From positions 1 through 64,000 of the forward strand of contig CADBIY010000007.1 of NCBI GenBank assembly GCA_902794895.1: a DNA stretch of 64,000 nucleotides, written 5' to 3'. The first letter of the stretch is position 1, and every line of letters begins with the position of its first letter. Made by a program: the position numbers and the translations under genes. The notes beneath the pieces are model-generated. The model saw only the letters and a list, made by a program, of their open reading frames with translations. It ran no database searches and had not been told where the DNA came from. Positions 14,547 through 48,700 of the stretch are shown here, one piece after another. The DNA is from Candidatus Avelusimicrobium vaccinum. Its GTDB lineage: Bacteria; Elusimicrobiota; Elusimicrobia; Elusimicrobiales; Elusimicrobiaceae.

Positions 14547-14578
14547 AAAAATCCCGGAATCACGATTCCGGGATTTTT
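14547..14578 (+). terminator. Intrinsic terminator after pilin 1
   Basis: A stem of AAAATCCCGGAATC against GATTCCGGGATTTTT with a 2-nt loop and a T tail; it is near perfect. Confidence 0.93.
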
Positions 14579-14586
14579 GTGTGTTG

Positions 14587-14842
14587 TGAAAACCCAACGT
14601 TAGGCATGGGGTTCCGTTAATGTTCAACTGATGAACAGGTTGTTAAGATAAATCATAAACTCATCCTGAACTTGATTCAGGATCTTCAACGGATGTTGTG
14701 GTAGTTACGAAACAGCAACGGCAAAAGCGGAAGATTCCAAATCAAGTTTGGAATGACACTTTGTTTAAAAACAGCAAGAACAAAGCGTGGGAAGTTGAGC
14801 GTGGCAGGTAGTTAAGAAGGAACTAAGCCCTTAGGGGAAATA
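14587..14842 (+). repeat. Long dispersed repeat (~250 bp), copy B, with palindromic core 14661-14758
   Basis: This gene-free stretch matches 48411-48668 in inverted orientation over about 250 bp. The match runs from TGAAAAC...GGTTCCGTTAA through GTTGTTAAGATAAATCATAAA and the core to GGCAGGTAGTTAAGAAGG. The core holds two hairpins: CCTGAACTTGATTCAGG near its left end and ATTCCAAATCAAGTTTGGAAT near its right end. No reading frame of note lies in it. It is an element of unknown mobility. Confidence 0.85.
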
Positions 14843-35923: not shown

Positions 35924-35960
35924 AAAAAATCCCGCGTCTAAAAAGAACGCGGGATTTTTT
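35924..35960 (+). terminator. Intrinsic terminator after glyS
   Basis: AAAAAATCCCGCGT (35924-35937) pairs with ACGCGGGATTTTTT (35947-35960), with a 9-nt loop. Confidence 0.93.
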
Positions 35961-35980
35961 ACGCGAACAAAAAAAATTAG

Positions 35981-35986
35981 TATACT
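35981..35986 (+). promoter_or_regulatory. -10 box upstream of the structured pilin leader
   Basis: TATACT in TTAGTATACTAG, followed 5 nt later by AGTAGT, as at the pilin of 14091. Transcription would begin near 35993 and give a leader of about 260 nt before ATG 36256. Confidence 0.55.
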
Positions 35987-36007
35987 AGAAAAGTAGTCAA
36001 CCATTTA

Positions 36008-36239
36008 AACTGTTTTTGGAACTGTATGCAGAATACAGGGCATTATCCGTAAGGATAGTCCCACGCTAATCCAAAAGCAGCCGCTTGAAGCACAAGATAA
36101 AGGGCCTTATAACCCCTTTGTTTTGTGCTGAATGTTTGCCATTCTGTCAGAATGGCAAACTACGGCTGTTTATATTGCAAGGCATTAGCGTGGGTTTGCA
36201 AGTAAACGGCCGTTTTTGCGTATGGTTTCCAAAGCAGTT
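36008..36239 (+). ncRNA. Large structured leader RNA or structured repeat, copy 1 (multi-helix)
   Basis: Helices read by eye: an outer stem closes the element (AACTG 36008-36012 with CAGTT 36035+200, i.e. 36235-36239; TTTGGAA 36015-36021 with TTCCAAA 36227-36233). Hairpin CTGTAT/ATACAG is at 36022-36038. A stem ATTATCC-GTAA-GGATAGT is at 36042-36059. CCCACGCTAAT (36060-36070) pairs perfectly with ATTAGCGTGGG (36184-36194). CAGCCG (36078) pairs with CGGCTG (36163). Inside are a 16-bp hairpin (36089-36104 with 36114-36129) and a 12-bp hairpin (36134-36145 with 36149-36160). A 12-nt palindrome is at 36204-36215. The pilin ribosome site AAAGGAG lies 5 nt after the outer stem. No known family was recognised. 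Confidence 0.6.
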
Positions 36240-36255
36240 ATAAAGGAGAAATTGT

Positions 36256-36849
36256 ATGCAGAAAGAAAAGATAGATAAAATCAATAGTCATGCTGAACTT
36301 GATTCAGCATCTCGTTGTTATAACAGAGAGATTCCAAATCAAGTTTGGAATGACGGCAAAGAGAAGGGTTTCACACTCATTGAACTGTTAGTGGTAGTTT
36401 TAATCATTGGCATTTTAGCGGCGGTAGCCTTGCCGCAATATAATAAAGCGGTGGAAAAAAGCCGCGTAGCCGAGGCGCGTGTAAACTTGAACACCATGCG
36501 CAAGAACTATGAGTTATGTGTTTTAGAATATGGAGATAGTGATGATAATGAATGTAATAAGTATCAAGAATTTATTCTTAATCATTTAACTATTCCGCTT
36601 CCCGGTGAATTTGAAACCGATATTGATAATTGTCCATCAGCAGGTAGTTCTTGTTTTAAGACAAAAGATTGGATTTATGATACGGATGATTCGTATGGAT
36701 TTTATGCAAACCGCATGATAAATGGTGCAAATCCATATGGTTTATGGATACACTACAATGATGGAAGTATAACCTGCTGGAATGAAGACACATCTTCCAC
36801 TGACTACTGCAAAATGTTATGTGGCGGGCATGATTGCATTTTAAAATAA
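36256..36849 (+). CDS. Type IV pilin-like protein with a repeat-derived leader (orphan pilin 2)
   Basis: A 197-residue prepilin whose leader is unusually long, about 38 residues. Residues 11-33 of the leader (HAELDSASRC..., IPNQVWND) are the in-frame translation of the dispersed palindromic repeat. After KEKG comes FTLIELLVVVLIIGIL and the helix AALPQYNKAVEKSRVAEARV-like region. The globular part has several cysteines (CVLEYGDSDDNEC, CPSAGSSC, CWNEDTSSTDYCKMLCGGHDC). ATG 36256 follows AAAGGAG; a start inside the repeat is possible but lacks a ribosome site. Promoter and terminator are its own. Confidence 0.82.
   Translation: MQKEKIDKINSHAELDSASRCYNREIPNQVWNDGKEKGFTLIELLVVVLIIGILAAVALPQYNKAVEKSRVAEARVNLNTMRKNYELCVLEYGDSDDNECNKYQEFILNHLTIPLPGEFETDIDNCPSAGSSCFKTKDWIYDTDDSYGFYANRMINGANPYGLWIHYNDGSITCWNEDTSSTDYCKMLCGGHDCILK
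36287..36355 (+). repeat. Short dispersed palindromic repeat, copy D, inside the pilin leader
   Basis: GTCATGCTGAACTTGATTCAGCAT forms the first hairpin (GCTGAA with TTCAGC) and ATTCCAAATCAAGTTTGGAAT the second. Against copies B and C, the first arm has changed C to G and its partner G to C, so pairing is kept. Confidence 0.85.
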
Positions 36850-38770: not shown

Positions 38771-38882
38771 AGTAGTAAAAAATTTGAATCTGTTTTTGGA
38801 ACGGCATGTAGAATGTAGTGGCGCTGTGCGTAGCAGCCCAACGAGCGTCCAAAGACAGCCTGTTTAGGCGCAAAATAAACGG
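38771..38882 (+). ncRNA. Structured element, diverged partial copy 2
   Basis: This region aligns with 35992-36085 over AGTAGT...CTGTTTTTGGAAC, ATGYAGAAT, GTA, TCCAAA and CAGCC. Stems are kept although the bases differ: GCAT/ATGT replaces CTGTAT/ATACAG, and TGG-c-GCTG/CAGC-CCA (38819-38840) replaces GGG-c-ATTATCC/GGATAGT-CCC, with the same bulged C. CTGTTTA/TAAACGG adds a stem at about 38870-38882. The downstream half and the closing strand are not found here, so the copy is partial. The rest of the gap to 39035 holds one hairpin (38938-38965) and no convincing gene. Confidence 0.5.
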
Positions 38883-39035
38883 AATAATGACTTGTACTGC
38901 TCATCCGACAGCTACAGTTTACGAAAAAAATAAAAATCTTTGTCTTTCCGTTTGCACGGACAAAGAATGGCGAACTTGGATTCACGGCGAGTATTGTATT
39001 ATTTAGCGAACTCGCAACGAACCACGCAAAAAAAC

Positions 39036-48410: not shown

Positions 48411-48668
48411 CCTACTAACCTAGGGCTTAGATCCTTCTTAACTACCTGCCACGCGCGACTTCCCACGCTTGGTTCTTGCTGTTTTTACACAAAGCGTCAT
48501 TCCAAACTTGATTTGCAATCTTCCGCGTTTGCCGTTGCTGTTTCGTAACTACCACAACATACGTTGAAGATCCTGAATCAAGTTCAGGATGACTTTATGA
48601 TTTATCTTAACAACCTGTTTATCGGCAGAACCTTAACGGAACCACACGCTTAGCGCAGGGTGTTTTCA
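48411..48668 (-). repeat. Long dispersed repeat (~250 bp), copy C, with palindromic core 48496-48593
   Basis: The reverse complement matches copy B (14587-14842) with few differences in the middle and more at the ends. Core hairpins are CCTGAACTTGATTCAGG and the ATTGCAAAT...GTTTGGAAT half, where one base change weakens the second. It fills the space between the lipoprotein gene and the OmpA-like gene's terminator; no reading frame is supported. Confidence 0.85.
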
Positions 48669-48673
48669 GCGAT

Positions 48674-48700
48674 AAAAAATATCCGCCCGGAGGCGGATAT
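48674..48700 (-). terminator. Intrinsic terminator after the OmpA-like lipoprotein
   Basis: On the minus strand ATATCCGCC pairs with GGCGGATAT, loop TCCG, followed by TTTTT. Confidence 0.88.

What the first reader, a model, noticed from the sequence alone, without database searches (positions are those of the whole stretch)
36008..36239. Large multi-helix RNA-like element forming the 5' leader of a pilin gene
Between a TATACT box and the ribosome site of the pilin at 36256 lies a ~230-nt stretch in which nearly every segment pairs. An outer stem (AACTG...TTTGGAA with TTCCAAA...CAGTT) closes it. Inside are a 5' pair of hairpins, then an 11-bp plus 6-bp stem leading to a junction that carries a 16-bp and a 12-bp hairpin, then a 12-nt palindrome. 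The ribosome site is 5 nt beyond the outer stem, so folding could control translation. Alternatives are an independent ncRNA or a non-autonomous mobile element with long terminal pairing. I know no family with this layout.
Basis: partly seen in the sequence, partly recalled or inferred. Interest (0 to 1): 0.85.

Follow-up and report, generated by a model that had tools for sequence, protein, structure and literature searches.

The report
Terminator-switch leader RNA of gut Elusimicrobiota
In front of a pilus gene of an uncultured gut bacterium lies an RNA switch, found in up to 46 copies per genome ahead of surface and defence genes, that can fold into a stop signal for transcription or into an alternative shape, and every copy carries its own matching code and a self-complementary loop that suggests pairing between RNA molecules.

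Summary
In detail: window 36000-36239 folds far better than chance (z = -11). It is a member of an RNA family with no Rfam match: 15 copies in this genome, up to 46 in relatives. I found it only in Elusimicrobiota, in two families of different classes. Covariation across 100 copies supports every helix.

Four strands (1 CUGUUUUUGG, 2 CCAAAAACAGYCG, 3 CGGCUGUU, 4 RRCRGCCG-U5) can pair in two exclusive ways. 1:2 with 3:4 makes an intrinsic terminator (about -24 kcal/mol, U-tract in 264/265 copies). 2:3 with S:S' makes an antiterminator. Both sets covary. So this is most likely a transcription attenuator, not a translational switch or a simple mobile repeat. About two thirds of copies precede pilin genes; others precede glycosyltransferases, outer-membrane proteins, lipoproteins and restriction-modification genes.

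Two features are unusual. The S:S' helix differs in every copy of a genome and has almost no G-U pairs. The 9-nt loop of hairpin 3 holds a 6-nt palindrome in 134/142 cases despite many different sequences, like the HIV-1 dimerisation loop. This points to RNA-RNA contact, possibly gene-specific feedback. The signal is unknown and nothing here shows transcription.

The parts
35930..35960 (+). Intrinsic terminator of the upstream glyS-like gene (CCCGCGT..ACGCGGG, T6); suggests the leader is its own transcription unit
   Evidence: Direct reading
35958..35986 (+). Putative promoter: TTTACG - 17 nt - TATACT (weak match; TATACT 35981-35986)
   Evidence: 9 of 12 positions; 0.8 expected by chance
36000..36009 (+). 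Conserved 5' flank (family consensus ACAATTTRAT), probably near the transcript start
   Evidence: core letters conserved at 69-90% in 262 copies
36010..36019 (+). Strand 1, CTGTTTTTGG; pairs with strand 2 (state A) or with strand 5
   Evidence: 1:2 paired in 96.7% of cells, not part of the model used for alignment
36022..36038 (+). Hairpin hp1 (6 bp)
   Evidence: Covariation in all 6 pairs
36042..36059 (+). Hairpin hp2 (7 bp)
   Evidence: Covariation in all 6 modelled pairs
36060..36070 (+). S, CCCACGCTAAT: copy-specific arm, perfect complement of S'
36071..36083 (+). Strand 2, CCAAAAGCAGCCG: pairs with strand 1 (state A) or strand 3 (state B)
36089..36129 (+). Hairpin hp3 (16 bp, 9-nt loop CCTTATAAC)
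   Evidence: Covariation in all 16 pairs
36107..36112 (+). Self-complementary 6-mer TTATAA in the hp3 loop (candidate kissing/dimerisation site)
   Evidence: 184/242 loops with a 6-nt palindrome against 15.3 expected
36134..36160 (+). Hairpin hp4 (11 bp plus a conserved bulged-U pair 36132:36161)
   Evidence: Covariation in all 11 pairs
36163..36170 (+). Strand 3, CGGCTGTT: pairs with strand 2 (antiterminator) or strand 4 (terminator)
36184..36194 (+). S', ATTAGCGTGGG: complement of S; lies in the loop end of the terminator hairpin in state A
36205..36217 (+). Strand 4 AACGGCCG followed by U5: 3' arm and tail of the intrinsic terminator (hairpin -24.2 kcal/mol here)
36224..36239 (+).
   Evidence: such a strand in 108 of 264 copies, 12 in shuffles
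36242..36248 (+). Ribosome site AAAGGAG
   Evidence: Direct reading
36256..36849 (+). Pilin-like gene (N_methyl domain, PF07963), the regulated gene
38784..38950 (+). Decayed second copy in front of a membrane sulfatase-like gene; 5' half recognisable, hp3 to strand 4 lost
   Evidence: 17.9 bits, E 0.04

Best explanation
It is a cis-acting transcription attenuator, a new leader-RNA family that makes the nascent transcript of a surface or defence gene choose between two folds. State A: strand 1 pairs with 2 and strand 3 with 4, giving an intrinsic terminator just before the gene (OFF). State B: the continuous arm S-2 pairs with 3-S', a three-way junction with hp3 and hp4, which breaks the terminator (ON). 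SHOWN by comparative sequence: both sets of helices, their mutual exclusion, the terminator-like stem with U-tract, position and orientation before genes. INFERRED: that RNA polymerase really terminates there, that B is ON, and that something shifts the balance. The computed balance is close: before strand 4 is made B is favoured by ~9 kcal/mol, afterwards A by ~6. There is no large conserved unpaired pocket, so I think the switch is more likely set by an RNA-RNA contact through the palindromic hp3 loop (dimer of two leaders), or by a protein, than by a small metabolite; that last step is a guess (about 0.4 for RNA-RNA contact of some kind).
For: State B covariation on 97 distinct copies: 94.3% of cells paired, 1482 cells changed on both sides, score 0.720 against 0.229 in shuffles and 0.09-0.14 when slid. 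State A pairs, which were not in the model, also covary: 113 both-side cells against 50 in shuffles, score 0.199 against 0.132 (0.06-0.08 slid), terminator arm included. One relative (L123) has changed all four strands together (AUAUUUUUGG / CCAGAAAUAG / CGGCUAUU / AAUAGCCG), and L073 changed the 1:2 end pair G-C to A-U; L038 shows the same in the unaligned reading. S:S' is complementary over 8-14 nt in 70 of 71 copies by an alignment-free test; mismatched copies typically give 4-7. Terminator: median -24.1 kcal/mol, at least 5 T in 8 after the stem in 264 of 265. Energies of A and B within a few kcal/mol, order reversed once strand 4 is made. A co-directional gene with ribosome site follows in 248 of 258; a long ORF starts downstream in 219/240 against 31/158 upstream on the other strand. 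8 of 15 copies in this genome precede one of its ~62 N_methyl loci, ~0.06 expected by chance (my arithmetic).
Against: No transcript data: neither a terminated ~210-nt RNA nor read-through has been seen. The terminator stem is long and its loop is 9 nt or more, so a standard scan (loop up to 8) does not call it. The U-tract could also be conserved because GUUUUU can pair with AAAAAC of strand 2. No signal, ligand or partner protein was identified. Conserved junction adenines (columns 113, 180, 288 of A2) leave room for a small pocket.
Confidence: 0.8

Rival explanations
1. Gene-specific RNA-RNA switch (an extension of the best explanation): the terminated ~210-nt leader, or a second nascent leader, pairs in trans with the leader of the same gene. 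The hp3 palindrome starts the contact and S/S' give the specificity, so each surface gene has its own feedback (possibly bistable) switch.
For: The hp3 loop holds a palindrome of at least 4 nt in 239/242 (expected 98) and of 6 nt in 184/242 (expected 15); by distinct loops 34/36 and 23/36 against 13 and 2; over a dozen different cores (TAATTA, TTATAA, TCATGA, TTCGAA, TTGCAA, TCTAGA, CTCGAG, CTATAG, GATC, GGCC and others). In 134 of 142 nine-nt loops the palindrome sits exactly at positions 3-8. No two copies in a genome share S (43 copies in G041); among element pairs 5-19% different elsewhere, 0 of 45 within a genome but 56 of 283 between genomes have S within 2 changes. G-U pairs are 2.0% in S:S' against 9.6% in hp2-hp4 (p 6e-14, cells not independent).
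Against: Near-identical S (1-2 changes) do occur in one genome among less similar copies, at the between-genome rate, so crosstalk is not strictly avoided. The pattern could also come from gene conversion that homogenises the rest of the element but not S. Palindromes are shared by many copies, so hp3 alone is not gene-specific. No RNA dimer was observed.
Confidence: 0.2
2. Metabolite or second-messenger riboswitch: the hp3/hp4 junction with strand 2:3 binds a small molecule that stabilises state B or A.
For: The two-state terminator architecture is that of many riboswitches; conserved junction A residues and a bulged U; pilin genes are controlled by c-di-GMP riboswitches in C. difficile (PMC11477304).
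Against: Few conserved unpaired residues outside the four switching strands; hp1 differs in size between the two families; the regulon mixes pilins, glycosyltransferases, outer-membrane proteins and DNA methylases; no Rfam riboswitch matches.
Confidence: 0.2
3. Binding site of an antiterminator or RNA-chaperone protein that controls a surface-gene regulon (LicT/BglG-like logic).
For: One architecture in front of many functionally related genes; protein-controlled attenuators are well known (general knowledge; BglG mentioned in PMC11477304).
Against: No sequence-conserved protein site outside the switching strands; the palindrome is conserved by symmetry, not by sequence.
Confidence: 0.25
4. 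Non-autonomous mobile element (MITE-like) with no regulatory role.
For: Copy number per genome runs from none to 46; similarity between close copies stops at the element's edges and downstream genes can be unrelated; strands 1 and 5 look like terminal inverted repeats in 41% of copies.
Against: Nearly always sense-oriented directly before a gene; terminator kept; compensatory changes in every helix including the switch strands; strand 5 absent in most. Target-site duplications were not tested formally.
Confidence: 0.05

Closest known systems
Terminator/antiterminator attenuators and transcriptional riboswitches (general class)
   Same: Four-strand 1:2 + 3:4 versus 2:3 logic with an intrinsic terminator before the gene
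   Different: No known aptamer or leader peptide; the antiterminator arm S is different in every copy of a genome; no Rfam family matches
c-di-GMP riboswitches before pilin and adhesin genes (e.g. C. difficile pilin operon, PMC11477304)
   Same: Control of type IV pilin genes from a 5' leader, in C. difficile mostly through transcription
   Different: No match to any Rfam c-di-GMP model; different layout; regulon includes glycosyltransferase and methylase genes
pT181-type antisense-controlled attenuators
   Same: Leader RNA whose terminator can be steered by RNA-RNA pairing (general knowledge)
   Different: No separate antisense transcript identified; the possible partner would be the leader itself
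HIV-1 DIS / oskar palindromic kissing loops (PMC7357161)
   Same: Six-nt palindrome in an apical loop; the 2+6+1 nt register is the one I recall for the HIV-1 DIS
   Different: Bacterial mRNA leader; palindrome sequence varies widely; dimer not shown
Termite-flg / Termite-leu RNAs (Rfam RF01729, RF01730; PMC2864571)
   Same: Candidate RNAs known only from termite hindgut metagenomes, a habitat of Elusimicrobiota
   Different: No match to these models in the window or in 20 loci

Membership tests
Transcription attenuator (cis leader) | Intrinsic terminator between promoter and gene | tested here: met
   3:4 stem with U-tract, 264/265 copies, -24 kcal/mol median, ~38 nt before the start codon
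Transcription attenuator (cis leader) | Mutually exclusive antiterminator supported by covariation | tested here: met
Transcription attenuator (cis leader) | Measured termination and regulated read-through | not testable with these tools
   No RNA data
Small-molecule riboswitch | Conserved ligand-binding core of unpaired residues | tested here: inconclusive
   Only a few junction residues conserved outside the switching strands
c-di-GMP-I/II and other Rfam riboswitches, T-box | Match to the Rfam model | tested here: not met
   No match at gathering score in the window; none over the element at E 0.05 in 20 loci
Ribosome-mediated (leader-peptide) attenuator | Conserved short ORF in the leader | tested here: inconclusive
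   hp1-hp2 length and frame vary between copies (by eye); no formal ORF test
MITE / mobile repeat | Terminal inverted repeats in all copies | tested here: not met
   Strand 5 present in 108 of 264
MITE / mobile repeat | Orientation independent of neighbouring genes | tested here: not met
   219/240 against 31/158
MITE / mobile repeat | Target-site duplication | not tested
   Flanks were only inspected for seven close pairs
DIS-like palindromic kissing loop | Six-nt self-complementary sequence in an apical loop | tested here: met
   134/142 nine-nt loops, at positions 3-8
DIS-like palindromic kissing loop | Homodimer in vitro, lost on mutation of the palindrome and restored by compensation | not testable with these tools
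   Needs RNA biochemistry

The most novel reading that the evidence does not exclude
A genome-wide set of up to 46 individually addressed RNA switches, in which each leader recognises another copy of itself through a palindromic kissing loop and its own S/S' code, so that terminated leader RNA feeds back on its own gene and makes surface-antigen and defence genes switch independently (an RNA-based alternative to DNA phase variation).
Probability: 0.15. Interest if true: 0.93.

Novelty: new variant of a known kind. Interest (0 to 1): 0.78.

Why it matters
It is a large attenuator family in gut and rumen Elusimicrobiota with no Rfam match, up to 46 copies in a 1.5-Mb genome, and apparently a main way in which these uncultured bacteria control individual pilins, surface glycans and restriction-modification genes. 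If the palindromic loop really makes leaders dimerise, it would be, as far as I know, the first case of mRNA homodimers steering bacterial transcription, and the copy-specific S/S' helices would offer ready-made orthogonal RNA switches. The claims are directly testable in vitro with one 250-350-bp template.

Tried and rejected
Rfam, gathering score on the window and E 0.05 on 20 loci: no known family (the hits are a neighbouring 5S rRNA and an sRNA model below its cut-off, outside the element). Phage and plasmid records, viral contigs: no match. A Bacteroidales pattern hit (L207) is a chance match: the model does not find it. Loop palindrome pairing with another site in the same leader: 18 of 184 recur against 15.2 with swapped palindromes, so no. 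Leader peptide: segment lengths and frames vary, no formal test. Fixed promoter spacing: the -10 box is not at a constant distance. Strict orthogonality of S: rejected for less similar copies, near-identical S occur at the background rate. Paper searches found no description of this RNA in the held library; the 224-candidate paper of 2017 is not held, so prior description there cannot be excluded beyond the Rfam check.

Full report
OBSERVATION. The region 36008-36239 folds at -108.7 kcal/mol, z = -11.2 against dinucleotide shuffles. Upstream, the glyS-like gene ends with its own terminator (35930-35960); a TATACT box follows at 35981-35986 (weak as a promoter by scan), and the gene downstream is a pilin with the N_methyl domain. 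No Rfam family matches in the window or over the element in 20 related loci.

A FAMILY. DNA search of the own genome found several copies. A covariance model R1 (196 positions, 59 pairs, built from 21 copies) found 15 in this 1.45-Mb genome and 46 in relative G041. It is present in 56 of 61 sampled genomes of the genus, with 41 (the scoring limit) or more copies in four of them, and in 69 of 248 sampled genomes of the phylum. These are two genera of the same family (f1) and four genera of a family (f12) that shares only the phylum; none of the listed order-mates of family f2 has it. Named contigs that carry it are mostly rumen and gut MAGs of Elusimicrobiaceae, including Candidatus Avelusimicrobium. 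Viral contigs, phages and plasmids gave nothing.

STRUCTURE BY COVARIATION. On 97 distinct copies from both families, state B (hp1, hp2, S:S', 2:3, hp3, hp4) forms 94.3% standard pairs, has 1482 cells changed on both sides, and scores 0.720 against 0.229 in shuffles; sliding the partners by 1 to 3 columns drops the score to 0.09-0.14. The alignment was fitted to state B, so two checks matter that were not. First, S and S' were compared without alignment: 70 of 71 copies have an uninterrupted helix of 8 to 14 bp, whereas S of one copy against the S' region of another typically gives 4 to 7. Second, the alternative pairs 1:2 and 3:4, which are not in the model, also covary (113 both-side cells against 50; score 0.199 against 0.132 in shuffles and 0.06-0.08 slid).

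THE SWITCH. Strand 2 is complementary to strands 1 and 3, and strand 3 to strands 2 and 4. 1:2 is paired in 96.7% of cells and 2:3 in 98.1%. In L123 all four strands have changed in concert. Strand 4 is followed by a U-tract in 264 of 265 copies and the 3:4 hairpin has a median of -24.1 kcal/mol against -6.3 for downstream control stretches. Up to the moment S' is out, fold B is favoured by a median of 8.7 kcal/mol; once strand 4 is made, fold A (terminator) is favoured by 5.9 (nearest-neighbour energies without pseudoknots). This is how a transcription attenuator is built.

GENES UNDER IT. Among 258 copies with enough downstream sequence, 248 are followed by a gene with a ribosome site in the same direction; 168 look like type IV pilins. 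The rest include glycosyltransferases of families 2, 8 and 9, LicD, outer-membrane beta-barrels, lipoproteins, an EcoRI-type methylase, a type III DNA methylase and HKD+Snf2 helicase-like proteins. This genome has about 62 N_methyl loci; 8 of its 15 leaders lie within about 170 nt before one, where about 0.06 would be expected by chance (my arithmetic). Close copies in one genome can sit before unrelated genes (L126 and L138), and similarity fades at the edges of the element, so the leader spreads as a module.

TWO UNUSUAL PROPERTIES. (i) The hp3 loop is self-complementary. In 242 loops of 6 nt or more, 239 hold a 4-nt and 184 a 6-nt palindrome; shuffled loops give 98 and 15. Counted once per distinct loop the figures are 34 and 23 of 36, against 13 and 2. 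The sequences are many and different, and in 134 of 142 nine-nt loops the palindrome sits exactly at positions 3-8. Conservation of symmetry without conservation of sequence is the mark of a homotypic RNA-RNA contact; HIV-1 DIS and oskar mRNA use six-nt palindromic loops, and the review that describes them says functional RNA oligomers have rarely been observed in nature (PMC7357161). The palindrome does not recur elsewhere in the same leader above chance. (ii) S differs in every copy of a genome. Matched for divergence of the rest of the element (5-19%), S is nearly the same in 56 of 283 pairs between genomes but in 0 of 45 within a genome (Fisher p 2e-4, pairs not independent). S:S' has 2.0% G-U pairs against 9.6% in hp2-hp4. 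This looks like a copy-specific code, but gene conversion of the rest of the element could produce the same picture, and less similar copies do have near-identical S at the background rate.

MECHANISM AND WHAT IS INFERRED. Termination itself, the direction of regulation and the signal are inferences. I favour an attenuator set by RNA-RNA or protein contact over a metabolite riboswitch, because conserved unpaired residues outside the switching strands are few and the regulon has a surface/defence theme rather than a metabolic one. The strongest version (terminated leader acting back on its own gene through dimerisation) is offered as the novel case, probability 0.15.

LIMITS. All genomes are assemblies, mostly MAGs, without RNA data. 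Pairs and cells in the counts are not independent. E-values from the short calibration are rough.

Noticed in passing
window 38784-38950: A decayed copy of the leader in front of a membrane sulfatase-like gene: strands 1 and 2 and the 5' half are readable, the 3' half is lost (17.9 bits).
   Followed up: partly
window 36273-36355; also 14573-14831 and 48422-48680: A dispersed palindromic repeat (translated HAELDSASRCYNREIPNQVWNDG) lies inside the N-terminal prepilin leader of the pilin ORF; the same repeat occurs within 89% inverted copies elsewhere in the window.
   Followed up: no
whole genome G000: About 62 N_methyl pilin-like loci in a 1.45-Mb genome; most have no copy of the leader, so what controls the others is open.
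   Followed up: partly
L137, L144, L131: A few copies in the f12 family are not followed by an obvious gene but by short AGCTGAGAAGCTGA-like repeats or other non-coding sequence; they could be stand-alone RNAs.
   Followed up: no
phylum search: Presence in two families that share only the phylum, with none in the listed relatives of the same order, suggests horizontal spread between gut lineages.
   Followed up: partly
downstream of leaders, e.g. L147, L216, L257: Some leaders precede restriction-modification or helicase defence genes rather than surface genes.
   Followed up: partly
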